NCBI GenBank assembly: GCA_902790135.1 | Contig: CADAQM010000003.1 | Coordinates: 29,761 to 86,941, forward strand | Origin: an uncultured Coriobacteriaceae bacterium | GTDB taxonomy: Bacteria; Actinomycetota; Coriobacteriia; Coriobacteriales; Atopobiaceae | Direction of reading: 5' to 3' | DNA length: 57,181 bases | Shown here: piece by piece, positions 30,924-44,206 of the stretch | Layout of the letters: each line of letters opens with the position of its first letter | Position numbering within the stretch: position 1 is the first letter of the stretch | Program-made: the position numbers and the translations under genes | The notes under the pieces: model-generated | What the model was told of the DNA's origin: nothing | The model's database searches: none | Seen by the model: the letters and a program-made list of their open reading frames with translations, nothing else

Positions 30924-32384
30924 CTATCCCACGTCAATCACACCGTCAGGCGCACCATAGGCGATGAGCTCGTCGACGGTGACAAAGGAGTAACCTTGCT
31001 CCACGAGCTGCGGCAATGCCATGCGCAGGCCCTCGACTGTCTGACTGCGGTCGCCACCGCCATCGTGCATGAGAATGACCTGTCCAGGCTGCACGGAAAG
31101 GATCCTCGAGGCGATCACGTCGGCACCCGGGAGGCGCCAGTCCTCGGTGTCCACGTCCCAACCAATCTCTGCGTCCACGGTGCCCCAGAGTGTGTCGATG
31201 ATCGAGCCGTAGAAGTTGCCGCCCGGCGCGCGAATGACATGCGGGGGCTCCTCGCCGATCACCTCTGCGATTGCCTGGTAGCCCCGCTTGATCTCGTCAA
31301 GCTGCTCAGCCGAACTCATGGCGGTCAGGTCGACGCCACCGCCGGAGCCACCGGCGTGGTCCCAGCTGTGCGTGCAGACCTCGCAGCCCATCTCGTGGGC
31401 GCGCTTCACCGCGTCGGGCTCCTCGGAGATCTGGTTGCCAATGGTGAAGAAGGTTGCCTTGGCATTGTTCTCCTCGAGGATGTCGAGGATCTGGTCAGTC
31501 TGCTCAGGCCAGGGACCGTCGTCGAAGGTGAGCGCGATCACCTTGTCCTTGGGCTTGGCGGTGTAGATCTTGTAGCCGGAGTCGACGGCGGGCTTGGTCA
31601 CCTCGGAGACCGTCTTCCCGGAGACCTTGCCGGTGCTCACGGTGCGCACGCCGTCCTCGCCATCGGACAGCAGGTGAATCGAGCCGGTCCAATAGTCGCC
31701 AAACTCGCGGCTGCTATCCGAGGTGCCGTAGGGAATGACCTCCTCGGTGACCTTCGCGTCCTCGGTCACGTCCTTGCCGTCGCCGATGGTGACCACCGCG
31801 CCGCGGTGCACGCGCGCGTCGATGGCCGCCGGCGTTCCGTCGATCTCGGCCGAGCAGCGATCTCCCCCACCCTCGGTCAGGATGGCCCCGTCCACCGCCA
31901 GCAGGTTTCCGGGCTTCGGGTCGGCCAGCCCCTTGTCGAGCAGCTTCTCGATGGTGGCGCCACGCCAGACCGTCGCCTTCTCTCCGTTGACCGTCACGCG
32001 GAAGCGTAGGAAGTGATGCAGGAGCAGCACCACGAGAAGCGCTGCGACACCTGCAACCACCATCATGTTGCGCGAGAGCTGGATGGGCTGACGCGGACGC
32101 TTGGCCTGGGGACGGCGACCCGCGGCGGGACGACGTCCGGAAGCGGGGCGGCGTCCATTGGTCGGGCGGCGGTTGGATGCCGGACGACGCGCACCTGCGG
32201 CAGAACTGCGCTGCGACGGAGAGCCCGGGCGAGAGCCTCTCGGACGCGAGGAGCCGCCTGCGCTGGAACGACGCGCCGACGTGCTTCGCGCCGCCGCGCT
32301 GCTTCTTTGTGCGTTGCGCCTCGTTGCTGATGGGTTGTGCCCCGCGCCTGTACGGCGGACGCGCCTGTCTTCAGAAGATGCCAT
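30924..32384 (-). CDS. membrane-anchored polysaccharide deacetylase (NodB domain)
   Basis: From the chosen ATG (MASSEDRR, with GGAG upstream) the protein has 486 residues. The first ~100 are Arg/Ser/Pro-rich low complexity and should be cytoplasmic; one helix follows (about 107-128); then an extracytoplasmic domain containing a ubiquitin-like DUF348-type piece (FRVTVNGEKATVW), and a C-terminal NodB domain. The catalytic motifs are intact: ALTFDDGPW (Asp-Asp), HSWDHA (two metal His), RAPGGNF, DVDTEDW and LMHDGGG. Such enzymes remove N- or O-acetyl groups from peptidoglycan or surface glycans. Together with the OatA-like gene it suggests cell-wall acetylation control. Confidence 0.92.
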   Translation of the reverse strand: MASSEDRRVRRTGAGHNPSATRRNAQRSSAAARSTSARRSSAGGSSRPRGSRPGSPSQRSSAAGARRPASNRRPTNGRRPASGRRPAAGRRPQAKRPRQPIQLSRNMMVVAGVAALLVVLLLHHFLRFRVTVNGEKATVWRGATIEKLLDKGLADPKPGNLLAVDGAILTEGGGDRCSAEIDGTPAAIDARVHRGAVVTIGDGKDVTEDAKVTEEVIPYGTSDSSREFGDYWTGSIHLLSDGEDGVRTVSTGKVSGKTVSEVTKPAVDSGYKIYTAKPKDKVIALTFDDGPWPEQTDQILDILEENNAKATFFTIGNQISEEPDAVKRAHEMGCEVCTHSWDHAGGSGGGVDLTAMSSAEQLDEIKRGYQAIAEVIGEEPPHVIRAPGGNFYGSIIDTLWGTVDAEIGWDVDTEDWRLPGADVIASRILSVQPGQVILMHDGGGDRSQTVEGLRMALPQLVEQGYSFVTVDELIAYGAPDGVIDVG

Positions 32385-32518
32385 GCTCCATCTCCCACAC
32401 TCTTGGTTGATTAGGGTCCATTGCCCATGGTAGCAGCCACTTTTGCCCCACAAGGGCAGAATCACCATGCATTTCTGAATTTGGGCCGAAAGCGTGCGCG
32501 AAGGTGCGCCGCGCGCGT

Positions 32519-33655
32519 CTACGCCAGCGAGCGCACGTCTATCTGGGTGGGGTCTTGTGCGGTCTTCCAACCGTTTCTACCGGAGAGCGCCTGGTGCGGG
32601 AGCGCCACAAGGCGAGTCCCCGCGCCGACGATGGGACGATAGAGCTCGTCTGCCACAATCACCTCTGCACCCAAAAGCGCCTCGGCAACGCCCTCCTCGC
32701 CCTCGACAAATGCGTCCGCAGCGCCGACGAGCTCACCTTGCGCCTCAAGCGGACAGAGCACGCGCGCGGCAACCCCCAGCTCCCGCTCCACCGCACATGC
32801 CAGGGAGCCTGCCATCACCGGCTCGCCCACCAGCGCCCACGGAGCCTCGCCGCGCTGGGCACGGGCGTCCCGATGCGGCCAGGCACACCGTCCGTCGCTC
32901 GCTGCGCGCCGCAGGGCACAGGCGAGCTCTCCAGCAAAGGCTCCTACGGGCAGTCCCGTGACGTAGGGGGTTCCAAAGCGCTCGCGCAGCACTTGCGCCG
33001 CCTTGAGACCCGTCGCCGAGACCACCAGGTTGACCTCGGCCTCAGCCGCGCGGGCAAGCTCATCGAGCGAGCTTCCCATGGCCCAGCAGGAGCTCACCTC
33101 AAACCCGGCGTCCGCCGCGAAGTCACGAAGCGTCGCGTCCGAACCCGCGATGCCCAGGTCGAGCGGCGTGGCGCCAAGGATGTTGAGCACGCCTCGCCGC
33201 ACCGGCGCCTCTTCGACAAAACGCCCAGCCACCTGCGCGAATGCGTTGCCGGCACCCACCACGTAGTCATGCATGCCATTGGTCCGCACGTAGAAGCAAG
33301 GTATGTGGCAGGCTCGCTCTACCAGCCGGCAGATGGCGGCAAAGTCGGTCCCGCTGATAAAGGGAATCGGCGAATTGCAGAGCGCAATGAAGCGTGGCGA
33401 GAGCTCACGGGCCGCATCAACCACATCCGCCACGAGCTTCTCGTCATTGCCCAGGATGGCGTCGCGCTCCACGAGCCCCGTGATGAAGATAAGGCTATCC
33501 TGGTCGTACCAGCGCGTCTCGTCATGCGTGTTGTAGGTGGAGTTGCAGCCGGAAGGGTCATGGATCACCACCATGCCGCCCAGCTCGAAGAGCGCCGAGC
33601 AGGCTCCGGAGACGTCGCCGGTGTAGGTGGGAACGATACGATTGGTCCGCCTCAT
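32519..33655 (-). CDS. nitrogenase component 1-like protein, NifK-like half of the split pair
   Basis: The 378-residue protein belongs to the nitrogenase component 1 superfamily (NifD/K/E/N, BchN/B, CfbD). Cys37 (IHDPSGCNST), Cys19 and Cys93 (IALCNSPIP) occupy positions where P-cluster or [4Fe-4S] ligands are expected. It is clearly paralogous to the C-terminal half of the 801-residue fusion in the same operon: both share LGGMVVI/LGGLVVI, RDAILGNDEKL/MDAIMGRDDKL, NPLDLG-like and GMGSS/AMGSS blocks and RFGTPY. The start ATG overlaps the stop of the preceding gene as ATGA; longer in-frame starts exist. It is the last gene of the operon. It probably forms a heterodimer with the 435-residue neighbour. 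Substrate unknown. Confidence 0.82.
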   Translation of the reverse strand: MRRTNRIVPTYTGDVSGACSALFELGGMVVIHDPSGCNSTYNTHDETRWYDQDSLIFITGLVERDAILGNDEKLVADVVDAARELSPRFIALCNSPIPFISGTDFAAICRLVERACHIPCFYVRTNGMHDYVVGAGNAFAQVAGRFVEEAPVRRGVLNILGATPLDLGIAGSDATLRDFAADAGFEVSSCWAMGSSLDELARAAEAEVNLVVSATGLKAAQVLRERFGTPYVTGLPVGAFAGELACALRRAASDGRCAWPHRDARAQRGEAPWALVGEPVMAGSLACAVERELGVAARVLCPLEAQGELVGAADAFVEGEEGVAEALLGAEVIVADELYRPIVGAGTRLVALPHQALSGRNGWKTAQDPTQIDVRSLA

Positions 33656-34959
33656 ATGCAGCTCACGCATCCTAAGCCCTTGCGCGGAACGATGTCGCGC
33701 GTGTCCTTCTCGCTCCGCCATGCCTCGCGCATGAGCCGTGCCATGCTTCGCACGCCCGCAAAGCCCCAGAGGCCTCCGCCGTACACGAGGTTGACGAAGT
33801 AGCCCGTGCCGGTGAACCAGGCCGCCTTGGGACCGATGGCCAGCGTCTTCTCCTGGCGCGTGCGCGGGGCAACCCGCAGGTCGGGCAGGATGGTGGACGA
33901 GAGTTCGAGCTCGGGCGCATGCTCGCGCAGCCAGTCGAGCGCAGCCGCCTCCTCCTCGTTCACACCATCGAGGTAGACCTCGCGCACGTTGAAGCCGTGC
34001 TCGATCAGCAGGCGGGCGAGCTCGAGCGGTCGCGGATGGACCACCGCATCGATGGCGATCGGCGCGTCGCCAACCACGGCAAGCGTCTCCGCCAGCTCCT
34101 CGTCGCAGGAGGCACGCTCAGCGGCAAAGTCCGGATAGGGCAGGCCAAAGAAGTCGAAGAGCTGCCCCTCCTGCCCCTCGATCTGCTCGTAGTCAAAGGT
34201 GGCGGGCAGGTAGAGGTGCGGGCGGCCCAGGCGCTCGGCCGTCTTGCGCGCGCCCCACTCGCCGGACGGGAAGACGCTCACGATGGTGCCCGCACGCGCG
34301 AGGCCGAGAAACTCCTCATAGGTCTTGCAGTCGTGGATAGACGCGAGACGCAGCCCGCCGGAGCGCAGGATCTTGCGCAGGTCGCTGTCCTCGTCGGGAG
34401 CGAACTCGCTGCCCAAAAGCGTCACCAGCGAGTCGTCCGGCTCCACGACAGGCAGTGGGTCATACATCACCTTGCGCAGGCGCTTGTCGGGGATGAGGCG
34501 CTTCTTGGAGATGGGGTCCATAAAGCCGCGCACGAAGTCCACCTGCGGGAACTCCGCCTCCAGCTGACGATAGACCCGGCCCATGGGCACGCCCAGAAAC
34601 AGGTGCGTGCACACCGGGAAGACGATGACGCACGGCGGCAGCTTGGGGAGCTTGTGCAGCACGTCGCGGATGCCGTCCAAGGTGATCTGCTCGACCGTGC
34701 CCCGCGTGATGTCCTCCTCCTTGAGGACCACGCAGGAGAAGCGGTCGAGCGCGCCCATCTCGGCGGCGGTGAGCACCACGCCACGCATGCAGTTGAGTGC
34801 GCAGACGTAGATCTGATGCGCCTCGGGCACCAGCATGCCGATATGCACGATGTTCCAGGTGCCGTGCACCGGCGCGTTGAACTCCAGCTTGGAGGGAAAG
34901 AGAGCCGTCGAGGTGGTCTCGCCCGCCGTGAGGGCGGACGGTCCGAGCCGTTTGAGCAT
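33652..34959 (-). CDS. nitrogenase component 1-like protein, NifD-like half of the split pair
   Basis: The 435-residue protein corresponds segment by segment to the N-terminal half of the 801-residue fusion (FNAPV/FNSPG, EEDITRG/ETDIVTG, PKLPPCVIVFPVCTH versus RPSVVMICITCVD, and the YKYLRGAGVR/LRKILRSGGLR region). Cys53, Cys57, Cys76 and Cys117 are candidate cluster ligands. It ends in an unusual GLGCVSCI tail not present in the fusion, possibly an extra metal or redox site. The ATG at 34959 has GGAGG at 8 nt; an upstream GTG overlaps that site and is rejected. It follows hypE by 62 bp and overlaps the next gene by 4 bp. Confidence 0.8.
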   Translation of the reverse strand: MLKRLGPSALTAGETTSTALFPSKLEFNAPVHGTWNIVHIGMLVPEAHQIYVCALNCMRGVVLTAAEMGALDRFSCVVLKEEDITRGTVEQITLDGIRDVLHKLPKLPPCVIVFPVCTHLFLGVPMGRVYRQLEAEFPQVDFVRGFMDPISKKRLIPDKRLRKVMYDPLPVVEPDDSLVTLLGSEFAPDEDSDLRKILRSGGLRLASIHDCKTYEEFLGLARAGTIVSVFPSGEWGARKTAERLGRPHLYLPATFDYEQIEGQEGQLFDFFGLPYPDFAAERASCDEELAETLAVVGDAPIAIDAVVHPRPLELARLLIEHGFNVREVYLDGVNEEEAAALDWLREHAPELELSSTILPDLRVAPRTRQEKTLAIGPKAAWFTGTGYFVNLVYGGGLWGFAGVRSMARLMREAWRSEKDTRDIVPRKGLGCVSCI

Positions 34960-35021
34960 GTCAGTCACCTCCTTGTCGCGGTGCGGTCAGAACGGGTGTG
35001 TGGGACGCGGTCCCGACGCCT

Positions 35022-36035
35022 CTAGCAGATGCGCGGGAGCAGCTCCCCACCAGGCTGGGGCAGAAGCGTCTCGGCACCGATCTCGGTGCGCATGACCACC
35101 CAACCGGGTCGGTCGTCGGTCACCTCGCCTATGATGGCGGCACCACCGGAGTTGGGGCAGCCACGCAGGGCCTCCACCAGCGCGGGAGCCTGCTCCTTGG
35201 GGGCGATGACCACGAGGCGCCCCTCGCAGGCGAGGTAGAGCGGCTCCAGGCCGAGCATGCGGCAGACGCCGCCCACGGCGGGGTCGACGGGCACGCTCGC
35301 GGCATCCAGGCGTACGCCCACGCCACTCTGCGAGGCGATCTCGTAGAGCACCGTGCCCACGCCACCACGCGTGGCGTCACGAATCACGTGGATGTCATTG
35401 GTCACGTCCAGCATCGCCTCGACGCTGTCCCACAGCGGCGCGCAGTCGCTCGTCACGTCCGCCTCGATGCCAAAGTCGTCACGGGCCAGAAGGATGGTGC
35501 AGCCATGGCGACCCACGTCGCCGGTCACGATGATCGCATCGCCCGGACGCGCCTTTGCGCCAGCGGGGGCCGCACCCTCGACGATCTCGCCCACGCCCGT
35601 GGTGGTGATGAACACGCCGTCGACCTGGCCCTTGCCCGCCACCTTGGTGTCGCCGGCAACCAGCGTCACACCGCAGGAGGCGGCCGTGTCCGCCATGGCC
35701 TGGGCGATCTGGGCGAGCTTGTCCAGCGGATAGCCCTCCTCGATCACAAAGCCGCAGGTCAGATACATCGGACGGGCACCCATGCAGGCAAGATCGTTGA
35801 CCGTGCCACAGATGGAGAGCTTACCGATGTTGCCACCTGGGAAGAACGACGGACTCACGATGAAGCCATCGGTCGACATGGCCATGCGTCCGCGGGGCGG
35901 CTCGAGAACCGCCGCGTCGTCCGCCGTCAGAAGCGGGCTCGCGAACCGTGCGGCAAACACCTCGTCGATCAGCTTTGCCGTCTGCTTTCCGCCGGCACCC
36001 ATGGCCAGCGTCACCTTGCCGGAAACCTCAGTCAC
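35022..36035 (-). CDS. hypE: hydrogenase maturation protein HypE (carbamoyl dehydratase)
   Basis: HypE takes the carbamoyl group from HypF onto its C-terminal Cys and dehydrates it with ATP to a thiocyanate, the source of the CN ligands of NiFe hydrogenase. The 337-residue protein has the PurM-like fold motifs STDGF, TVNDLACMGA, GDTKV, TGDVGRHG and ATRGGVG and ends in the obligatory PRIC tail, so it should be active. The start is GTG with GGAGG 9 nt upstream and overlaps hypD by 4 bp. It sits between hypD and nitrogenase-like genes in one operon. Confidence 0.97.
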   Translation of the reverse strand: MTEVSGKVTLAMGAGGKQTAKLIDEVFAARFASPLLTADDAAVLEPPRGRMAMSTDGFIVSPSFFPGGNIGKLSICGTVNDLACMGARPMYLTCGFVIEEGYPLDKLAQIAQAMADTAASCGVTLVAGDTKVAGKGQVDGVFITTTGVGEIVEGAAPAGAKARPGDAIIVTGDVGRHGCTILLARDDFGIEADVTSDCAPLWDSVEAMLDVTNDIHVIRDATRGGVGTVLYEIASQSGVGVRLDAASVPVDPAVGGVCRMLGLEPLYLACEGRLVVIAPKEQAPALVEALRGCPNSGGAAIIGEVTDDRPGWVVMRTEIGAETLLPQPGGELLPRIC

Positions 36036-37084
36036 AGCAGGTCACCTCCGTATTGGTAGTAGGCCGAGCAGGCCCCCTCCCCCGACACCATGCAGGCCCC
36101 GACCGGGCTCTGCGGCGTGCAGACCTTGCCAAACAGCGGGCAGTCCGAGGGCTTGCAGTGGCCCTGGAGCACCTCGCCGCAGCGGCAGGCAGGGTTGGCC
36201 TTGCCCTCGATGTGGGGCATGTCGAACTTCTTGCGCGCATCAAAGGCCGCATAGGCCTCGCGCAGCCGCAGGCCGGACTGCGGGATGACGCCCAGACCAC
36301 GCCACTCGGTGTCGCAGGGCTCCATCACGCGCTCGATGAGCTCCACGGCCGCAGGCGTCCCCTCGGGCCTGACCACGCGCGGGTAGGCGTTGACAAAGAA
36401 GGGCTCGCCCTCCTGCGCCTTGGTCACCGCCACGGCAAGGGCCGTGAGCAGCTCCTTTGCCGTGAAGCCCGCGAGCACGCCGCTCACGCCCTGCTCCACC
36501 AGCTCCTCGCAGAGGGAGGTTCCGGTGATGGCGTGCACGTGCCCGGGATACAGGAAGACGTCGGCGCTGCCCTTGAGCGCCGCATAGGCGTTGGGCATCG
36601 TCTTGTTGGCTACAAGCAGGGAGAAGTTCTCCACACCCTGCGCGTGTGCCTGCTCGACCGCGAGACAGGAGGCTGGCACCGTCGTCTCGAAGCCCACCGA
36701 CAGGAAGCACACCTGCTCCTCGGGATGGGCCTTCGCATACTCCAGCGCGTCGAGCGGCGAGTAGACCACCTGTACGCGGGCGCCATCGGCACGCGCAGAG
36801 GCGAGGCTGCGCGTGGTGCCCGGGACGCGCACCAGGTCACCGAAGGTGGTGATGGTCACGCCTTGGTCTGCAAGCCACAGCGCTTCGTCGATGAAGCCGA
36901 CCTGCGTCACGCAGACCGGGCAGCCCGGCCCGCTGATGAGGTCCACCTGTGGTGGCAGCAGCTTGCGGATGCCCAGGCGGAAGATCTCGTGGGTATGCGT
37001 GCCGCACACCTCCATGATGCGCAGGCGCGGACCGTCATAGTCGGCCAGCACCTGTGCGGCTGTCTTGCCCTTTGCGTCACTCAT
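36032..37084 (-). CDS. hypD: hydrogenase maturation protein HypD
   Basis: HypD is the [4Fe-4S] scaffold on which, with HypC, the Fe(CN)2CO unit is built. The 350-residue protein retains MEVCGTHTHE (iron/cyanide-binding Cys), SGPGCPVCVT (redox Cys pair), VGFETT, and the C-terminal cluster region CRCGEVL, DCPLFG, CTPQSPVGACMVS and EGACSAYY. All essential Cys are present. It overlaps hypC and hypE by 4 bp (ATGA/GTGA), typical of a tightly coupled maturation operon. Confidence 0.97.
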   Translation of the reverse strand: MSDAKGKTAAQVLADYDGPRLRIMEVCGTHTHEIFRLGIRKLLPPQVDLISGPGCPVCVTQVGFIDEALWLADQGVTITTFGDLVRVPGTTRSLASARADGARVQVVYSPLDALEYAKAHPEEQVCFLSVGFETTVPASCLAVEQAHAQGVENFSLLVANKTMPNAYAALKGSADVFLYPGHVHAITGTSLCEELVEQGVSGVLAGFTAKELLTALAVAVTKAQEGEPFFVNAYPRVVRPEGTPAAVELIERVMEPCDTEWRGLGVIPQSGLRLREAYAAFDARKKFDMPHIEGKANPACRCGEVLQGHCKPSDCPLFGKVCTPQSPVGACMVSGEGACSAYYQYGGDLL

Positions 37085-37293
37085 GCCAGCAGTTCCTCCA
37101 TGACCTCGTCGGTCTCGTGCTCGTCCTCGTCGGTGATCTTGGCGATGGCGATGCCCGCATGCACCATCACGTAGTCGCCCGGCTCGACGTCATTCAGCAG
37201 CTGGACGGATATCTCGCGCTTGGCACCCGAGGCATCCACCATGGCCATGCCGTCCGCGATGCGCACCACCTTGGCCGAAAGTCCCACACACAT
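37081..37293 (-). CDS. hypC: hydrogenase maturation chaperone HypC
   Basis: HypC (70 residues) carries iron from HypD via its N-terminal Met-Cys. An ATG four codons upstream lacks a ribosome site, whereas GGAG lies about 7 nt before the ATG that yields MCVGLSAKV. That start also gives the Cys2 required by the family, so it is chosen. PGDYVMVHAGIAIAKI matches the conserved core. In most HypC the motif is MCLAxP; here Gly-Leu-Ser replaces Ala-x-Pro. An acidic tail with EDEHETDE follows. Overlaps hypD by 4 bp. Confidence 0.95.
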   Translation of the reverse strand: MCVGLSAKVVRIADGMAMVDASGAKREISVQLLNDVEPGDYVMVHAGIAIAKITDEDEHETDEVMEELLA

Positions 37294-37338
37294 GTTTAAC
37301 TCCATTCGTCACAACGGGATGAGAGGCTCTCGTCCCGC

Positions 37339-39678
37339 CTAGTTCCTCGAAATGCTGCCGTCGCGTATCTGCGTGGCGGCCACCACTGCCTGCCCCAGCG
37401 CGATGCCCCCGTCGTTGGGCGGCACCATGCTGTGCGTGAGCACCGTGAAACCCCGCTCGCGCAGCGCGCGCACGGAGAGCTCGAGCAGCAGCTGGTTCTG
37501 GTAGCAGCCGCCCGTGAGCGCGACCGTGGTCACGCCCGTGTCCCCGCGCGCCTGCTCGCAGGCCGCCACCACAAGCTCGGAGAGTCCCCGATGGAAGGCA
37601 TAGGCAAGCTCCTCGGCCTGCCCGCCGGCAAGACGGGCGTCGACAATCCGGGCAAAGAGCGCGTCGGTTGCCAGCACGAAGGGCCCCTCCTCCGAGACGC
37701 GCACCAGCTCCTGATCCGCCCCAAAGAAGCGGGCGGGACGAGCCTCATGCGGGCAGCGCTCGGCGGCAAACTGCAGGTTGGTCGCCGCCTCGCCCTCGTA
37801 GCCCGAGGCCCTGCGCACGGAGAGCACCGCACTCACGGCGTCAAAGAGGCGCCCTGCGCTCGTGGAGGCGACGGCATTGATGCCGCGCCCCAGCATCGCA
37901 AGCACCACGCGCGCCTCAGACTCATCGCAAATCCCCAGCTCAAGGGCATCGCCACGCGCCGCATCGGCACTGCCGCGCGCCGTGCGCAGCATGTCGAGCG
38001 CCACGCGCCAGCCCTCGCGAGCGGAGAGATCCCCGCCTGCCTGCAGGAAGGGTGCGATATGGCCCAGACGCTCGAAGCCCCGGTAATCGCTGAGAAGGAT
38101 CTCGCCTCCCCAGATGCTGCCGTCCTCGCCGTAGCCCGTGCCGTCAAACGACACGCCGATGACGGGGTCCGCCACGTCGTTCTCGGCCATGCACGAGACC
38201 ACGTGCGCGTAATGGTGCTGCACGCGCACCAGCGGCACACCGCGCTCGGAGGCAAGCTCCTCCGCCACGCGCGTGGAGTTGTAGAGGGGATGCAGGTCGC
38301 AGGCGATGGCTGTCGGCTCGAGCTCCAGAAGCGACTCGAAGCGCCCGACCGTCTCCTGCAGGGCGGCAACCGTGCGCACGTCGGAGAGGTCTCCCACGTA
38401 CGAGGACGGGTAGAAGAGCTCGCCAGAACCCAGGCAGAAGGTGTTCTTGAGCTCGCCACCGATTGCCAGCACCTGCGGATAGCTCCCACCCGAGAGCATG
38501 AGCGGCAGGGGCGCCCAGCCGCGCGAGCGACGAACCATGTAGGGCTTGCCCTCAAACAGGTCGGTCACGGTGTCGTCGCAGCGCGTGCGGATAATGCGGT
38601 TGTGGCTCAGGATCGCGTCGCAGAGCGGTCCGAGCTCCGAGCGCGCCTCGTCGTCATCGCGGCAGATCGGCGCACCGCTTTCGTTTGCGCTCGTCATTAC
38701 GAGGCAGTCGGGCATGACCACCTCGTCGTCGTAGGTAAAGAGCAAAAGCTGCAGCGGCGCGTAGGGCAGCATGACGCCCTGCTTGGGATTGCCGGGCGAG
38801 CACTCCTCGCACACGAGTCCGCCCGCGCGCTTGGGGAGAAGCACGATGGGCTTCTGGTGCCCGTCGAGCAGCTCACGCGCCTCGTCGCTCACCACGCACT
38901 CACGCTCGGCGACGGCGAGGTCGCGCGCCATTACGGCGAAGGGCTTGCCGGGGCGCTTCTTGCGCTCGCGCAGCAGCTCGACAGCCGCGGGGTTGGTGGC
39001 GTCGCAGCACAGGTGGAAGCCACCGATGCCCTTGACCGCCACGATTCCGCCCGCTGCGATGATGCGCCGCGTCTCGGTGATCGCGGCACGCCCGCGCTCC
39101 GGACGGTCGAGCAGGTACTCCTCGGGCCCGCAATCGTTGCAGCAGACCGGCTGTGCGTCGTAGCGCCTGCTCGCCGGGCTGTAGTACTCGTGCGCGCAGG
39201 TGGGGCACATCGGAAACGCCTTCATGCTGGTGCGCTCGCGGTCGTAGGGCAGGCTCTCCAGGATGGTCAGGCGCGGCCCGCAGCAGGTGCAGTTGATGAA
39301 GGGGTGCAGATAGCGGCGATCGGCGGGGTCGTAGAGCTCGCGCTTGCAGTCGTCGCAGATGGCGATGTCGGGTGAGATGAAGATCTCGCCCTTGGTGCGC
39401 TCGCTCTCCACGATGGAAAAGCCCTCGTAGACGGGCGCGTCGGGCGCTGGCTTGACGTCTATCTTGAGGATGGTGGCGCGCCGGGGCGGCTGAGTGCGCA
39501 TGAGCTCGACGAAGCGGTCGATCTGCTCGGGGGTCCCTTGGGCATAGATCTCCACGTAGGGGCCCTTGTTGCACACCGTTCCCGCGATAGCCGCCGTGGT
39601 GGCATGGCGGTCGACCGTCGGCCTGAAGCCCACGCCCTGCACGATGCCATACACGCGTATGCGTCTGGTCTCGATCAT
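37339..39678 (-). CDS. hypF: hydrogenase maturation protein HypF (carbamoyltransferase)
   Basis: HypF makes carbamoyl-AMP from carbamoyl phosphate and ATP and carbamoylates HypE. The 779-residue protein has every domain: acylphosphatase (VYGIVQGVGFRP at the N-terminus), two zinc fingers (CDDCKRELYDP...CTCCGPR and CPTCAHEY...CCNDCGPE), a YrdC/Sua5 domain (GGIVAVKGIGGFHLCCDA, SANESGAPI) and a Kae1-like domain (HHYAHVVSCMAEN, FDGTGYGEDGSIWGGE, LTGGCYQN, NDGGIALGQ). GGAGG precedes the ATG by 4 nt; an earlier GTG abuts that site. The ATG overlaps the TGA of the nitrogenase-like fusion by one base, so translation is coupled to that gene. Confidence 0.97.
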   Translation of the reverse strand: MIETRRIRVYGIVQGVGFRPTVDRHATTAAIAGTVCNKGPYVEIYAQGTPEQIDRFVELMRTQPPRRATILKIDVKPAPDAPVYEGFSIVESERTKGEIFISPDIAICDDCKRELYDPADRRYLHPFINCTCCGPRLTILESLPYDRERTSMKAFPMCPTCAHEYYSPASRRYDAQPVCCNDCGPEEYLLDRPERGRAAITETRRIIAAGGIVAVKGIGGFHLCCDATNPAAVELLRERKKRPGKPFAVMARDLAVAERECVVSDEARELLDGHQKPIVLLPKRAGGLVCEECSPGNPKQGVMLPYAPLQLLLFTYDDEVVMPDCLVMTSANESGAPICRDDDEARSELGPLCDAILSHNRIIRTRCDDTVTDLFEGKPYMVRRSRGWAPLPLMLSGGSYPQVLAIGGELKNTFCLGSGELFYPSSYVGDLSDVRTVAALQETVGRFESLLELEPTAIACDLHPLYNSTRVAEELASERGVPLVRVQHHYAHVVSCMAENDVADPVIGVSFDGTGYGEDGSIWGGEILLSDYRGFERLGHIAPFLQAGGDLSAREGWRVALDMLRTARGSADAARGDALELGICDESEARVVLAMLGRGINAVASTSAGRLFDAVSAVLSVRRASGYEGEAATNLQFAAERCPHEARPARFFGADQELVRVSEEGPFVLATDALFARIVDARLAGGQAEELAYAFHRGLSELVVAACEQARGDTGVTTVALTGGCYQNQLLLELSVRALRERGFTVLTHSMVPPNDGGIALGQAVVAATQIRDGSISRN

Positions 39679-42083
39679 CACGCCTCCAGCCTTCCGGAGA
39701 CGGCAAACTGCGGCACGTCCACGAGTGTTTGCACATGGCCTTCGACCAGCGGCCAGACCGTGCGGTCGCTGACGATCACGTCAAAGCCGTCCTGCGCAAC
39801 AAGCTCAGTGAGGTCGCCCTCCTCCGCAAGGCGCACGTCGCCCGGCTCGGAGAGCTCGCGCTTCTGCATGAACCAGGTGGCACAGGTGACCGAGGTCGCC
39901 CCGCGGGCGAGCAGCTCCGCGCGCAGCGTGTTGGCGCTCACCTGCTGGTCGACGACAAGCACTCGCGCGCCGGCAACGTCGATGTCACCGGCTAGCTCGG
40001 CAGCCAGTGGGTTGCGAATCTCATAGGGGGTGCCAAAGCGCTCCTCGAGCAGGCGCGCCGCAGCCAGGCCGGACGGTGCCACCACGAGGTTGCGCTCGGC
40101 GCTCGATGCACGGCACACGTCCTCGAAGCTCGAGCCCATGCCATAGCAGACGGCCCCCGGCACCAGCTCGCGCAGGTGGTCCGACGAGGTCACGCCCAAA
40201 TCCAGCGGGTTTGCGCCGAGAACACCCACACGCCCCTTGTCGACGGGCAGGGCTTCGGTGGCAAATCGGCCCATGAGCTCGCGGTAGGCCTTCTCGGCAC
40301 CGGCGTCGTAGAGCTCCATGCCCGTGGTGTCGATCGTTATGGTGGGAATGCCGCCCCTGCGCTCGCTCATGCGCCGCAGCGCGCGGTAGTCCGTGGCGAT
40401 CACGGAGGGCACCGGCGTGCCCACCACTGCGGCAAAGTGCACGTCCATCTTGCCAGCCGCGTCGGCCAGCTCGCCCACGAGCTTGTCGTCGCGGCCCATG
40501 ATGGCGTCCATGTCGCGCAGGCCCGCGCTGAAGATGGCGCTTCTGCCCGAGGTCCAGCGCGGCTCGTCAAAGCCGCAGATGTTGCCCGTGCAGCCACCGG
40601 CATCGCAGATCACCACGAGCCCGCCAAGGTCGTAGAGCACGGCCGTGGCACCGGACTGGTCCGGCGCGAAGGGCGTCAGGTACTTGCGCAGCCCGCGCAC
40701 GCGCCGCGTCGGCGCGCCAGAGGTGGCATCGGATTGCAGGTGGAAGTGGGTGCCCTGCCCCTCCCCGCCCGTTGGAGACGGTTCCTTCTGGTCCGCGTCG
40801 CCCATCGCGCGGGCGAGCTCCTCGAAGAGGCGGCGCACGCCCGCATAGCCGTAGGGCTGAACGTCGGAGTTCCAGGGCAGGCAGATGGCCTCCGGGTGAT
40901 ACCAGCCGGCATCCTTGCCCAGCGCGACGTCGACCGGACAGTCCGTGGCGTCGTAGTGGATCATCGTGGGCTCCATGTTGGAGTACACGCGCGTGTGCGG
41001 GGAGAGCTCGGCGAGATGGCGCAGCCAGACGAAGTTCTCTCCCGTGATGGTGCCAAAGACCTCGCGCACCTCGAGACCCGCGCGCACCAGGGCAAGCGCG
41101 AGCTCGAAGGCGTCGGCGTTAAGACACTCCCCCACCGCGAAGCGCGCACTTGGCCAGCGCGTACAGAAGGCGTCTGCGGCCTGCTGGGCACGGGCGATGT
41201 CCTCGGCGTCGTCGAAACTCACGCCGAGCACCTGGCCCAAGGCCTGGTACTGGCGGTGCAGACGGTCGATCTGATAGAGGCGTGTGAGCTCGATGGAGGG
41301 CATCTGCAGGCGCTCCTGCAGGTCCGCCGCCGCAAAGCGCGCCTCCGGATGCAGCACGAGGTTGAAGTTTGCCTCGGCCATCTGCAGGAACTCGTCGAAG
41401 TCGGCGCAGCGCGAGACCTCGCGCACCGTGCGCACGCCGGCGCCGCGGAGGTACTTGTAGAGCTCGCAGTCGTCTGCGAGCGGCGCGAAGAAGCCCATCA
41501 CGTTGACCGAGGTCGCGCGCTTGGGCAGCGGCTCGAGCAGCGAGTAGAGGCTCTGGCGCACGTGCACCATGGGAGGGCGGCGCCCCTCGCGCGTGAGCGC
41601 GTACATGTAGCAGGGCCTCACGGGCAGGCCTGCCAGCTCCTCGGCACGGCGGCAGACGCGCTCCATGTCGGTGCCAAGCAGCGCGTCCACGCAGGTGATG
41701 CAGATCATCACCACAGATGGGCGCTCGGAGAGGCTCGCCACGACCTCCTGCACCGCCTGCGGAATCTTGCGCAGGTGGCGCCCCGTGACGATGTCCGTCT
41801 CGTCCATGTTGAGATAGAAGAAGCGGTTCTCGTAACCGGGAATGCGGCTGATGAGCGAGGTGTTGCGGCCGCAGCAGCCAGGGGCCACCACCAGCATGAT
41901 GGAGCCGGGGATGGCAAGGCCTGCGCGCTTGACGCCAAAGCCCTCCGCACCGGGAGAGTTGAACGCCAGCGTGGCAGGCGAGCTGTAGATGAGGTGCCGG
42001 CTGGAGACCAGCTCGTCGGGCAGATTGTCCAAGCCGCGCTCCGCGAGCTCGGCCGTGGTGAAGAAGCGCGCCTCGCGTTTCAT
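39678..42083 (-). CDS. fused NifD/NifK-like nitrogenase component 1 protein
   Basis: The 801 residues contain two nitrogenase component 1 domains in one chain. The N-half (about 25-425) has PGCCGRNTS (Cys70/71) and ICITCVDALLGTD (Cys128/131), where NifD/NifE have cluster ligands. A linker rich in Gly, Ser, Thr and Pro (about 430-462) leads to the C-half (about 465-801) with ICDAGGCTGNICGF (Cys493/498/503); the third ligand region reads AAVVGTPVP without Cys. Each half is paralogous to one of the two separate component-1 proteins at the end of the operon. It starts 2 bp after the NifH-like gene, so it is the likely electron acceptor of that protein. The reaction is unknown. Confidence 0.85.
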   Translation of the reverse strand: MKREARFFTTAELAERGLDNLPDELVSSRHLIYSSPATLAFNSPGAEGFGVKRAGLAIPGSIMLVVAPGCCGRNTSLISRIPGYENRFFYLNMDETDIVTGRHLRKIPQAVQEVVASLSERPSVVMICITCVDALLGTDMERVCRRAEELAGLPVRPCYMYALTREGRRPPMVHVRQSLYSLLEPLPKRATSVNVMGFFAPLADDCELYKYLRGAGVRTVREVSRCADFDEFLQMAEANFNLVLHPEARFAAADLQERLQMPSIELTRLYQIDRLHRQYQALGQVLGVSFDDAEDIARAQQAADAFCTRWPSARFAVGECLNADAFELALALVRAGLEVREVFGTITGENFVWLRHLAELSPHTRVYSNMEPTMIHYDATDCPVDVALGKDAGWYHPEAICLPWNSDVQPYGYAGVRRLFEELARAMGDADQKEPSPTGGEGQGTHFHLQSDATSGAPTRRVRGLRKYLTPFAPDQSGATAVLYDLGGLVVICDAGGCTGNICGFDEPRWTSGRSAIFSAGLRDMDAIMGRDDKLVGELADAAGKMDVHFAAVVGTPVPSVIATDYRALRRMSERRGGIPTITIDTTGMELYDAGAEKAYRELMGRFATEALPVDKGRVGVLGANPLDLGVTSSDHLRELVPGAVCYGMGSSFEDVCRASSAERNLVVAPSGLAAARLLEERFGTPYEIRNPLAAELAGDIDVAGARVLVVDQQVSANTLRAELLARGATSVTCATWFMQKRELSEPGDVRLAEEGDLTELVAQDGFDVIVSDRTVWPLVEGHVQTLVDVPQFAVSGRLEA

Positions 42084-42085
42084 CG

Positions 42086-42841
42086 CTACACCTGACCGTC
42101 CCAGAGGCGACGCGCGAGATCGAGGAAGCGCTCGCTCACGGGAAGCGTCTGGTCGCCCTCGATGACCGTCTTGCCCTCGTCCTCAAAGCGGTTGATGTCG
42201 TCAGAGCGCGGAATCCGGGCCACGATGGGCAGCCCATGCTCGTCGGCGAAGGCCTGCACCTTCTCGAGCTCGTCAGGCACGTTGCGGTGGTTGAGCACGA
42301 TGCCAGCCACACGCGCGTACCCGCGGTCCTCGAAGTTGGCCACTGCCGTCTGGATGTTGTTGGCCGCGTAGAGGGCCATCTTCTCGCCGGAGGTGACGAT
42401 GAGCACCTTCTCGGCATAGCCCTCGCGGATGGGAGCCGCAAAGCCACCACAGACCACGTCGCCCAGCACGTCGTAGAGCACGACGTCAGGCTGCCAGGTC
42501 TCAAAGAGGCGCAGGTCCTCGAGCAGGTTGAAGGTGGCGATGATGCCACGACCCGCGCAGCCGAGGCCAGGCGTCGGTCCGCCCGTCTCGATGCAGAGAA
42601 CCCCGCCGAAGCCTTCGCGCGAAATCTCCTCGAAGCTCTCGGGATCGGTGTCGTTCTCGCGCAGGTAGCTCATCACCGGACGGAGCAGCTCTCCGCCCAG
42701 AAGGTTGATGGTCGAGTCAGCCTTCGGATCGCAGCCGATCTGAATCACGCGATGACCCTGCACGGCAAACGCCGCCGCCAGGTTACTGGTGATGGTGGAC
42801 TTGCCGATACCGCCCTTGCCATAGATGGCTATCTTGAGCAT
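42086..42841 (-). CDS. NifH/BchL/CfbC-like iron protein (nitrogenase reductase family)
   Basis: The 251-residue protein is a complete NifH-family ATPase. It has the P-loop [10 protein letters not shown] (residues 7-16), the CDPKADST switch, both inter-subunit [4Fe-4S] ligands (Cys95 in PGLGCAGRG and Cys131 in DVVCGGFA) and YDVLGD. As a homodimer it should pass low-potential electrons to a component-1 partner with ATP hydrolysis. It is shorter than nitrogenase NifH (about 290) and similar to BchL/CfbC-like proteins. The ATG ([11 protein letters not shown]) has GGGGGAG about 8 nt upstream; the longer frame is leader RNA. First gene of the eight-gene operon. Confidence 0.9.
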
Positions 42842-43015
42842 GCCAGTCGCTCCCCCTATAGACACACGAAAGCCGCCCAGCGACAGGCTTGGCGGCAATA
42901 CGGCATAGGCGCAGACTGTGGGTCAACGCAGCCGTTCTTGCTTGGACGTATCCTTGCCGTCAAGGTTGCATCGCAAAGACGCTCTTCCGGGTGCTTCCCG
43001 TCAGATGTTCGTCTT
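42842..43015 (-). ncRNA. structured 5' leader of the nitrogenase-like/hyp operon (candidate cis-regulatory RNA)
   Basis: From the predicted start of transcription to the first ATG there are about 170 nt. Three hairpins are visible on the minus strand: AAGACG (43015-43010) pairs with CGTCTT (42981-42976) and encloses CGGG/CCCG; CCTTG pairs with CAAGG (42965-42952); GCCGCC/GGCGGC with an inner AGC/GCT (42896-42872) lies just before the ribosome site and is followed by TTTCG. I could not match it to a known riboswitch class. Confidence 0.45.
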
Positions 43016-43019
43016 GCCT

Positions 43020-43048
43020 ATCCTACCAAAGCCCGCATATGGTGACAA
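43020..43048 (-). promoter_or_regulatory. promoter of the nitrogenase-like/hyp operon
   Basis: TTGTCA (-35, 43048-43043) and TAGGAT (-10, 43025-43020) are separated by exactly 17 bp, reading toward the NifH-like gene. Transcription would start near 43013. Confidence 0.6.
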
Positions 43049-43160: not shown

Positions 43161-43766
43161 ATGTGCCACAGGATCTCCCCCTTGGTCATAGCCGAGCTCA
43201 AGGCCGCGCTCGAGCAGCTCGGGATGAGCGGACACGCCCGCATACCCAGGCGGGAGCCCGGCGTGGTGGTACCCGACGTCTACCCCGGCAGGCAGCTGCC
43301 CCTCTTTGTGACCAATGGGTCGGGCGCCCTCGAGGCGGTGGAGCTTACATGGGGCTTCGACGCCCCACCCGGCACGCGGTCGAAGCTCGTCTTCAACACG
43401 CGCATCGAGACCGCCCTCTCCCAGGCACGGTCGGGCACAGGGCTCTGGGCTGCCCCCATCACACTCGGGCGCTGCCTCGTCCCCGTGCGCGGGTTCTTTG
43501 AGCACTACACCAGATCGAGTGACCGACGCGGCGAGCAGTGGCGCTTCACCTACCCTGGCCACAGCGTGTTTCTGCTGGCTGGCGTCTGGGAGAACGACCG
43601 TGTCTCGGTGGTCACCACCGTCCCCAACGCAGACGTCTCCCCCATTCACACACGCATGCCACTCGTCCTCGCTCCGGGGGAGTCGTCGGTGTGGCTGGGT
43701 CCGGACTTCGCGCGATTGGCGGACCGCTCGGCGGTGCGCCTCGTCGCCGAGAAGGAACAGGCCTAG
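43161..43766 (+). CDS. SRAP-domain protein (YedK/HMCES family)
   Basis: The 201-residue protein starts Met-Cys; Cys2, exposed after Met removal, is the residue that crosslinks to abasic sites in single-stranded DNA. Other family features are LTWGF, NTRIET, CLVPVRGFFEHY (the Glu of the active site) and SPIHTRMPLVL with the conserved His. SRAP proteins shield abasic sites and are linked to the SOS response. GAGGAGG precedes the ATG. It is divergent from the nitrogenase-like operon. Confidence 0.93.
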   Translation: MCHRISPLVIAELKAALEQLGMSGHARIPRREPGVVVPDVYPGRQLPLFVTNGSGALEAVELTWGFDAPPGTRSKLVFNTRIETALSQARSGTGLWAAPITLGRCLVPVRGFFEHYTRSSDRRGEQWRFTYPGHSVFLLAGVWENDRVSVVTTVPNADVSPIHTRMPLVLAPGESSVWLGPDFARLADRSAVRLVAEKEQA

Positions 43767-43792: not shown

Positions 43793-44206
43793 CTAGATGA
43801 TCACGCCGTTGCAGTGATCGACCTCATGCTGGATCGTCTGTGCGACAAAGCCGTCGAAGGCATCCTCGTGCGCTTGCAGACGCTCGTCGTCGTACGCCAC
43901 CACGATGCGCCTGAAGCGCTGGGCGGTGCGGATCCCCTCCAGCGATAGGCAGCCCTCCTCGGCCTCGTAGGGCCCCTCCGCCTTGACGATGCGTGGGTTG
44001 AACATCACGAGGACCTTGCCCGCGCCATCGAGCACGGCGATGATGCGTTTGCGCTCGCCGATCATGTTGGCGGCCATCCCCACGCAGTGCGCCCGATGCG
44101 CCTCGAGCGTCTCGGCGAGGTCCTCAGCAATGCCCAGGTCGTCGGCAGTTGCCGCCTCGCTCGGTTGGCGCAGGAAGAAGCGCTTGGTCATTATTGCGCG
44201 GATCAT
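43793..44206 (-). CDS. peptide deformylase, divergent type
   Basis: The 137-residue protein has the deformylase metal motifs EEGCLS (Cys ligand) and QHEVDHCNG (HExxH). The first motif, normally GxGLAAPQ, reads VGMAANMIG, so the Gln that stabilises the oxyanion is replaced by Met. It should remove N-formyl groups from new proteins, but may be a secondary, less active or specialised copy. It is convergent with the SRAP gene, with 26 bp between stops. Confidence 0.85.
   Translation of the reverse strand: MIRAIMTKRFFLRQPSEAATADDLGIAEDLAETLEAHRAHCVGMAANMIGERKRIIAVLDGAGKVLVMFNPRIVKAEGPYEAEEGCLSLEGIRTAQRFRRIVVAYDDERLQAHEDAFDGFVAQTIQHEVDHCNGVII

What the first reader, a model, noticed from the sequence alone, without database searches (positions are those of the whole stretch)
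32519..43048. Eight-gene operon joining a nitrogenase-like reductase to the HypCDEF machinery
One minus-strand transcription unit reads: NifH-like protein, fused NifD/K-like protein, HypF, HypC, HypD, HypE, then separate NifD-like and NifK-like proteins. Junctions are overlaps of 1-4 bp or gaps of 2-62 bp, so co-expression is built in. Known nitrogenase-like systems (dark protochlorophyllide and chlorophyllide reductases, CfbCD in coenzyme F430 synthesis, methylthio-alkane reductase) are not known to me to embed hyp genes. HypCDEF builds the Fe(CN)2CO group of NiFe hydrogenase. Possible readings are a reductase that uses or matures a Hyp-type ligand set, or a nitrogenase-like complex that helps hydrogenase maturation. 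No structural hydrogenase gene is in the window.
Basis: partly seen in the sequence, partly recalled or inferred. Interest (0 to 1): 0.93.

Follow-up and report, generated by a model that had tools for sequence, protein, structure and literature searches.

The report
A nitrogenase-like substitute for HydG
A conserved gene set of gut bacteria, joining nitrogenase-like proteins to the cyanide-and-CO machinery of nickel-iron hydrogenases, keeps company with HydE and HydF, two assembly enzymes of iron-only hydrogenases, in genomes that nearly always lack the third one, HydG, and so it likely makes that hydrogenase's cyanide and carbon monoxide ligands by a second route.

Summary
The eight-gene operon is real. 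The order H1-D1-K1-hypF-C-D-E-[H2]-D2-K2 recurs in two phyla: rumen/gut Coriobacteriia, and Clostridia such as Blautia, Roseburia, Coprococcus. The hyp genes do not serve a NiFe hydrogenase in the window's family: 0 of 37 genomes have a large subunit, and HypD occurs in 15 of 17 operon genomes and 0 of 20 others. hydF and/or hydE lie beside the operon in 49 of 94 loci. HydG, which normally supplies CO and CN from tyrosine, is missing: 0 of 16 operon+HydF+ genomes, against 4 (plus one fragment) of 6 without the operon; 2 of 50 Clostridia with D2 have it. In a test predicted beforehand, all 19 Lachnospiraceae with operon-type HypD (four known before) fell in the HydE-type+/HydG- set, none among 131 HydG+ genomes; 15 of the 34 predicted lacked it. 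Blautia luti and B. schinkii, whose genomes here carry it without HydG, are reported to have active hydrogenase (PMC12773636; other B. luti strain). Best reading: a HydG replacement in which HypCDEF makes Fe-CN units and NifEN-like complexes supply CO and electrons. Replacement is well supported; the chemistry is inferred.

The parts
42086..42841 (-). H1: NifH-like Fe protein (251 aa; ORF open up to 42898)
   Evidence: PF00142 293.8 bits; below every named NifH-type cut-off in NCBIfam; Cys95 and Cys131, taken as the Fe-S ligands, in 77 of 77 rows
39678..42083 (-). D1-K1: fused nitrogenase component-1-like protein (801 aa)
   Evidence: PF00148 two stretches; D half nearest NifE; best fold match by E-value is single-chain NifEN 9i0g, with low TM-score 0.36; fused in some relatives of both phyla, separate in others
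37339..39681 (-). HypF carbamoyltransferase (780 aa)
   Evidence: TIGR00143 721.1 bits, over cut-off; zinc-finger cysteines 109, 112, 131, 134, 159, 162, 181, 184 in 65 of 65 rows
37081..37293 (-). HypC (70 aa) with Cys2
   Evidence: TIGR00074 69.1 bits; Cys2 in 77 of 77 rows
36032..37084 (-). HypD (350 aa)
   Evidence: TIGR00075 386.5 bits; Cys27 of the CGTH motif in 76 of 78 rows, C-terminal cysteines 300, 302, 315, 322, 331, 339 in 78 of 78; operon-type clade apart from NiFe-type
35022..36035 (-). HypE (337 aa)
   Evidence: TIGR02124 409.4 bits
35025..35036 (-). C-terminal PRIC motif of HypE (cyanide-carrying cysteine)
   Evidence: Cys337 in 77 of 78 rows; role of the PRIC cysteine from the start of the abstract of PMC12130793
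33652..34959 (-). D2: NifD-like protein (435 aa), no family hit
   Evidence: model pLDDT 87.6, best fold matches NifEN, Fe- and V-nitrogenase; Cys57 and Cys117 in 89 of 89 rows
33655..33681 (-). C-terminal tail KGLGCVSCI of D2 with a CxxC pair
   Evidence: both cysteines invariant in 33 close homologues; Cys431 in 79 and Cys434 in 72 of 89 wider rows; pLDDT under 50 over residues 427-435, read as flexible
32519..33655 (-). K2: NifK-like protein (378 aa)
   Evidence: PF00148 104.9 bits; Cys37 in 81 of 82 rows; 43% identical to K1 over 244 residues

Best explanation
The operon is likely a replacement for the radical-SAM maturase HydG in [FeFe]-hydrogenase assembly: nearly all of its carriers that were searched lack HydG while keeping HydE and HydF type maturases, and it would supply the iron-bound CO and CN that HydG otherwise makes from tyrosine. 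Inferred steps: HypF and HypE turn carbamoyl phosphate into a cyanide on HypE's C-terminal cysteine; HypC-HypD builds an Fe(CN)(CO) unit; the ATP-driven Fe protein(s) and the two NifEN-like DK complexes provide very low-potential electrons, most likely to make CO (from CO2 or another one-carbon source) and to convert the two-cyanide Hyp-type unit into the one-cyanide, CO-rich units that HydE joins on the way to HydF and HydA. Shown: gene content and order, conservation of the Hyp cysteines, exclusion of HydG, the HydE/HydF neighbourhood. Not shown: any chemistry.
For: (1) Exclusion of HydG: 0 of 16 operon+HydF+ genomes of the window's family have it; of 6 HydF+ genomes without the operon 4 have it over cut-off and 1 a fragment (Fisher p 0.002, or 0.0002 with the fragment); 48 of 50 Clostridia with D2 lack it. 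(2) Prediction noted before the search: 19 of 19 genomes with operon-type HypD among 299 Lachnospiraceae fall in the 34 listed as HydE-type+/HydG-, 0 among 131 HydG+; without the four already known, 15 of 15, p 3e-13. (3) hydF and/or hydE beside the operon in 49 of 94 loci, TM1266 in 55, true hydG in 0. (4) No NiFe large subunit in 37 of 37 family genomes; [FeFe] hydrogenase domain in all 17 operon genomes of the family; no HypA or HypB over cut-off in four operon genomes at least 96% complete, one of them a single contig. (5) HydE/HydF of operon and HydG loci interleave in trees, e.g. HydF of G014 (operon) sister to G029 (HydG), 100/100; at least 6 (HydF) and 4 (HydE) label changes forced. 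(6) HypC Cys2, HypD Cys27, HypE Cys337 in 77/77, 76/78, 77/78 rows. (7) B. luti makes H2 and B. schinkii extract has about 23,000 mU/mg hydrogenase (PMC12773636, passages); their genomes here have the operon, HydE and ThiH but no HydG. (8) The anaerobic source of the Hyp CO ligand is called the most pressing open question (PMC12134894, passages).
Against: Two of 50 Clostridia (G071 Oliverpabstia, G072) have canonical hydE-hydG-hydF as well as H2-D2-K2-hydF; their contigs end at about H2, so hyp genes could not be seen. 15 of the 34 predicted HydE-type+/HydG- Lachnospiraceae lack operon-type HypD; the hits behind the 34 were sorted by score pattern, not identified one by one. G006 has HydF, no HydG and no operon (76% complete). 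G013 has the operon but no HydF (73% complete). One carrier (G083, Blautia sp. MSJ-9) gave no HydE-type hit, and G107 no hit at all. HydF and HydA were not searched genome-wide in the Clostridia, NiFe large subunits neither. Hyp makes Fe(CN)2CO, whereas the H-cluster has one CN per iron, so an exchange step must be assumed. Against CO2 as the CO source: the review says labelling ruled out added CO2 as direct source in Cupriavidus necator (PMC12134894). Several family members have HydA with H-cluster motifs and no HydF or HydG, so HydA alone proves nothing. The physiology was done on another strain of B. luti; the B. schinkii strain was not seen. No biochemistry.
Confidence: 0.76

Rival explanations
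1. HydE, HydF, Hyp and the nitrogenase-like proteins together build a new organometallic cofactor for the nitrogenase-like enzyme itself, a reductase of unknown substrate; the [FeFe] hydrogenases in these genomes are matured otherwise or not at all.
For: Two complete DK pairs with conserved cysteines, seven in D1-K1; no substrate known; some relatives keep HydA without HydF or HydG; a distant H-D-K cluster without hyp lies beside ABC transporter genes.
Against: It does not explain why HydG is missing where the operon is present; HydE/HydF of operon genomes are close kin of HydG-linked ones; Blautia luti and B. schinkii have measured hydrogenase activity (PMC12773636).
Confidence: 0.1
2. A variant of the main reading, not exclusive of it: the nitrogenase-like proteins act on the iron unit after Hyp has made it (for example cyanide removal or reduction to Fe(I)), and CO comes from elsewhere in metabolism.
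For: Closest folds are NifEN, an assembly scaffold, not a CO-making enzyme; D2 has a CxxC tail of low model confidence suited to hand-over; added CO2 was ruled out as direct CO source for Hyp in one aerobe (PMC12134894).
Against: Nothing found here excludes it; it differs only in the step assigned to the reductases.
Confidence: 0.35
3. The hyp genes serve a NiFe hydrogenase that the searches missed, and the nif-like genes are bystanders.
For: HypCDEF are classical NiFe maturases; large subunits can diverge; PF00374 was not searched in the Clostridia.
Against: 0 of 37 family genomes match PF00374 while 22 of 23 other genomes of the order do in the same search; HypA/HypB missing in several carriers; HypD tracks the nif-like genes; the B. 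luti paper names only hydABC and hydM, both [FeFe] (passage).
Confidence: 0.03
4. HydG is dispensable here: HydE and HydF scavenge free CO and CN, and the operon makes or regulates something else.
For: HydF co-produced with HydE alone activated HydA to about 1%, more with added CO or CN (passage in PMC9431212).
Against: The B. schinkii activity of about 23,000 mU/mg is not a trace; the operon holds a complete CN-making set and goes with the loss of HydG.
Confidence: 0.05

Closest known systems
HydEFG maturation of [FeFe] hydrogenase
   Same: HydE, HydF, the TM1266 gene and [FeFe] hydrogenases are present
   Different: HydG absent in 16 of 16 HydF+ carriers of the window's family and 48 of 50 Clostridia; an unrelated multi-gene cassette is there instead
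HypCDEF assembly of Fe(CN)2CO for NiFe hydrogenase
   Same: all four proteins pass curated cut-offs and keep their key cysteines
   Different: no NiFe large subunit in the window's family, HypA/HypB missing in several carriers; HypD forms its own clade at 46-51% identity to the NiFe type of the order
NifEN, nitrogenase cofactor scaffold
   Same: nearest fold and, for D1, nearest sequence; single-chain fusion also known for NifEN
   Different: 12-19% identity in the fold matches, far below the NifE cut-off (88 of 505 bits)
Methylthio-alkane reductase and dark protochlorophyllide reductase
   Same: NifH-like donor plus DK-like acceptor; D2's best solved relatives by sequence are 9fmg_A (methylthio-alkane reductase) and 9d9u_A (E 9e-6)
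   Different: weak similarity, two DK pairs, embedded hyp genes, linked to hydE/hydF
CfbCD of coenzyme F430 synthesis
   Same: nitrogenase-like ATP-dependent reductase; H1 scores 291.5 bits on CfbC
   Different: below its cut-off of 402; CfbD-type match 28.8 bits for D1-K1, cut-off 268

Membership tests
HypCDEF (Fe-CN/CO assembly) | all four proteins over curated cut-offs with HypC Cys2, HypD CGxH cysteine, HypE C-terminal Cys | tested here: met
NiFe hydrogenase maturation system | a NiFe large subunit in the genome | tested here: not met
   PF00374 0 of 37 genomes of the family; not searched in the Clostridia
NiFe hydrogenase maturation system | HypA and HypB for nickel | tested here: not met
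   absent over cut-off in G000, G002, G014, G028; present in other family members with or without the operon
HydEFG system | HydE, HydF and an [FeFe] hydrogenase with H-cluster motifs | tested here: met
   own genome HydE 557, HydF 534, HydA group A 477 (reading frame split) and group B1 595 bits; two group B motifs seen
HydEFG system | HydG | tested here: not met
   0 of 17 operon genomes of the family; 2 of 50 Clostridia
nitrogenase (NifHDK) | curated NifH/NifD scores | tested here: not met
   nifH 299.5 of 394 bits; nifD 19.4 (D1-K1) and 31 (K2) of 654 bits
nitrogenase (NifHDK) | six P-cluster cysteines | tested here: inconclusive
   D2-K2 keeps few (C57, C117 in 89/89; C37 in 81/82), but D1-K1 has seven well-kept cysteines (D1 C70, C71, C128, C131, C144; K1 C48, C53) whose match to P-cluster positions was not established
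NifEN-like scaffold | holds a metal-cofactor precursor | not testable with these tools
   fold similarity only
HydG functional replacement | supplies CO and CN for the H-cluster | not testable with these tools
   genomic exclusion only

The most novel reading that the evidence does not exclude
This would be the first role of a nitrogenase-like enzyme in hydrogenase assembly, the first non-NiFe use of HypCDEF, and a genetic lead to where CO ligands come from in anaerobes.
Probability: 0.42. Interest if true: 0.97.

Novelty: categorically new. Interest (0 to 1): 0.94.

Why it matters
All five CO and CN ligands of the H-cluster were shown to come from tyrosine in a HydEFG system (PMC3105041, abstract). 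Here three metallo-assembly worlds (nitrogenase-like reductases, NiFe Hyp proteins, FeFe Hyd proteins) appear joined in one cassette that seems to have changed places with HydG several times, in human-gut and rumen bacteria. It makes the 'most pressing' question of NiFe maturation, the anaerobic origin of CO (PMC12134894), testable: a candidate CO-making enzyme is encoded next to the Hyp genes. It would also predict which gut H2 producers make their hydrogenase without HydG's p-cresol by-product (by-product recalled), and offers a new tool for making [FeFe] hydrogenase in laboratory hosts.

Tried and rejected
NiFe hydrogenase partner: searched and absent in the family. Nickel insertion: HypA/HypB occur in many family members regardless of the operon and are missing in several carriers. 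Divergent HydG hidden in weak hits: five of five re-scanned hits of 179-192 bits are ThiH over its cut-off, five of five re-scanned weak hits are HydE; the rest were not re-scanned. 22 of 94 operon loci gave hits to a HydG query: all 55-70 bits and on the hydE gene; no HydG ORF at 75% coverage. Plasmid search: only one record covered at 80% or more, Treponema saccharophilum pTS1, without hyp. The fused D1-K1 model (pTM 0.61, linker and parts near the cysteines under 50 pLDDT) is too weak to read cluster geometry; no coordinates were examined. Cysteine counts mixed some D2/K2 rows into D1/K1; one search recounts them and corrects my first view that both pairs keep only three cysteines. Papers: nothing naming this gene set or a HydG-free replacement in the listings; subscription papers and preprints are mostly not held, so a description elsewhere cannot be excluded.

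Counts: the 94 operon loci and the alignments include nine genomes fetched twice (left out). One search was given 50 of 55 Clostridia loci (five short ones dropped: L126, L127, L132, L134, L146). One search kept 80 of 174 relatives.
Full report
What is there. The window's minus strand holds H1 (NifH-like), a fused D1-K1, hypF, hypC, hypD, hypE, D2 and K2. The four Hyp proteins pass their NCBIfam cut-offs. H1 falls short of every NifH-type cut-off (nifH 299.5 of 394 bits, CfbC 291.5 of 402, BchL 209 of 345). D1-K1 scores 88 of 505 bits on nifE. D2 has no Pfam or NCBIfam match. Junctions are 2-62 bp gaps or 4-bp overlaps.

It is conserved. Of 14 family relatives fetched, 12 show the whole order and 2 are cut by contig ends; D1 and K1 are separate in several, and G027 has a second NifH between hypE and D2. 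A scan of a collection of 84,980 species' genomes with D2 gave 174 relatives, of which 80 were kept: Coriobacteriia (Atopobiaceae, Olsenella, many from rumen) and Clostridia, among them Blautia schinkii, B. massiliensis, B. luti, Coprococcus comes, C. catus, Roseburia faecis, Eubacterium ramulus, Faecalicatena contorta. 55 of 80 loci show H1-D1-K1-hypFCDE-(H2)-D2, 67 hypFCDE-D2 and 74 any hyp. Six show none: L095, L108, L109, L126, L150 have D2 near a contig end; in L110, as in L107, D2-K2 precedes H1-D1-K1. Operon-type HypD from both phyla is one side of a branch (SH-aLRT 100, quick tree) against 19 HypD of other genomes of the order, 46-51% identical to the window's.

It does not serve NiFe hydrogenase in this family. 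Of 37 genomes of the family (own genome included), 17 have the D1-K1 protein; HypD is in 15 of these (the two misses are 73-75% complete) and in 0 of 20 others; PF00374 is in 0 of 37, but in 22 of 23 genomes of other families of the order. HypA and HypB are absent over cut-off from four carriers at least 96% complete, including G028, a single contig; other family members have them with or without the operon.

It belongs with [FeFe] hydrogenase. In B. schinkii the gap after hypE holds a TM1266-family protein (TIGR03959), and 55 of 94 loci encode one. hydF, often then hydE, follows K2 or lies upstream of H1 (hydF 46, hydE 33, either 49 of 94 loci; true hydG 0). The own genome has hydE and hydF side by side on another contig, a group A HydA (reading frame split) and a group B1 HydA. 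All 17 operon genomes of the family match PF02906, but so do most family members without HydF.

It excludes HydG. HydF over cut-off is in 22 of 60 genomes: 16 with the operon, none with HydG, and 6 without (G006, G017, G021, G029, G039, G055), of which 4 have HydG over cut-off and G021 a 110-residue fragment. Fisher p is 0.002 (0.0002 with the fragment). Of 50 Clostridia carrying D2, 2 have HydG; 48 have a HydE-type weak hit. From a HydG scan of 299 Lachnospiraceae (131 with HydG) I listed by score pattern the 34 genomes with a HydE-type hit but no HydG, and noted the prediction before searching the same genomes with the window's HypD. Operon-type HypD (62-74% identity) occurred in 19, all within the 34; none in the 131. 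Four of the 19 (G067, G079, G080, G082) were known carriers; without them it is 15 of 30 against 0 of 131, p 3e-13. 35 further genomes have only a more distant HypD (40-55%, taken as NiFe type), 12 of them with HydG. Fifteen of the 34 lack operon-type HypD; I could not see why.

Swaps. In trees of HydF (66 rows) and HydE (53 rows), operon-linked and HydG-linked proteins interleave: HydF of G014 (operon) is sister to that of G029 (HydG) at 100/100; HydE of G002 and G014 (operon) joins that of G017 and G029 (HydG) at 99/96. Well-supported branches force at least 6 and 4 changes of the operon label; two of the HydG rows are the exceptions below. HydE and HydF thus look like a common core to which either HydG or this cassette is attached. 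The exceptions, G071 and G072, carry a canonical hydE-hydG-hydF and, elsewhere, H2-D2-K2-hydF at a contig end.

Active hydrogenase without HydG. Trischler and Mueller 2026 (PMC12773636; passages and abstract) report H2 production by B. luti DSM 14534, hydrogenase activities of about 20-640 mU/mg, cite about 23,000 mU/mg for B. schinkii, and name hydABC and hydM as the hydrogenases of B. luti; HydG and maturation have 0 occurrences. The genomes here, B. luti MSK.16.34 (G081) and B. schinkii MSK.6.26 (G067), hold the operon, HydE and ThiH, but no HydG; their HydF was not searched. In Roseburia faecis (G086) hydE and hydF are neighbours.

How it may work (inference). HypC Cys2, HypD Cys27 and HypE Cys337 are kept in 77/77, 76/78 and 77/78 rows, so cyanide from carbamoyl phosphate and an Fe-CN unit on HypCD are expected. 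The two DK pairs differ: D1-K1 keeps seven cysteines (D1 C70, C71, C128, C131, C144 in 62-65 of 65 rows; K1 C48 and C53 in 66 and 62 of 68), D2-K2 keeps C57, C117 (89/89), C53 (85/89) and K2 C37 (81/82), so they may hold different clusters and do different steps. Folds point to NifEN. D2 ends in a CxxC tail of very low model confidence that could carry the iron unit. Nitrogenases can reduce CO2 (to hydrocarbons: start of the abstract of PMC10803253; to CO: recalled). A 2025 review (PMC12134894; passages) notes that CO2-to-CO on HypCD would need about -530 mV and ATP, that labelling ruled out added CO2 as direct source in C. necator, and that the anaerobic CO source is unresolved. An ATP-driven reductase encoded beside HypCD fits that gap. 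Because Hyp makes two cyanides per iron and the H-cluster has one, an exchange step is needed; that is a guess and the weakest point.

What is known. The PMC searches listed under Tried and rejected showed no description of this gene set. ProPhylo (PMC3226654; passages) lists fewer genomes for HydG (179) than for HydE (189) and HydF (200) at its profile depth, which agrees with a HydG-free minority, and notes species with hydrogenase but no maturases. PMC9431212 (passages) discusses Clostridium acetogens where hydG was not found by motif.

Noticed in passing
G019, G020, G022, G036 (loci L174, L175, L186, L185): Genomes of the window's family, 98-99% complete, with HydA-type proteins keeping H-cluster motifs but no HydF or HydG over cut-off; how these would be matured is unknown.
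   Followed up: partly
L001:11235-17531 (Treponema saccharophilum pTS1): A nitrogenase-like H-D-K trio, 30-56% identical, beside iron-type ABC transporter genes and without hyp genes.
   Followed up: no
L070, L071, L072, L073 (other families of the order): Further H-D-K clusters without hyp genes in genomes that do have NiFe hydrogenases; function unknown.
   Followed up: no
L086, L087, L091, L093: Insertions of about 1.6-4.2 kb between D2 and K2 in some Coriobacteriia.
   Followed up: no
L169:6548-7888 and upstream (G000:C15:50751-51659): The own genome's group A HydA is split over two reading frames; sequencing error or decay not decided.
   Followed up: partly
L069 (G028:C1:159281-161581): The D1-K1 gene of the single-contig genome has a local change of frame in its middle inside a long open frame.
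   Followed up: no
window 43161-43766 (+), 43793-44206 (-), 30924-32570 (-): Flanking genes are ordinary: SRAP-type SOS peptidase, peptide deformylase, polysaccharide deacetylase.
   Followed up: partly
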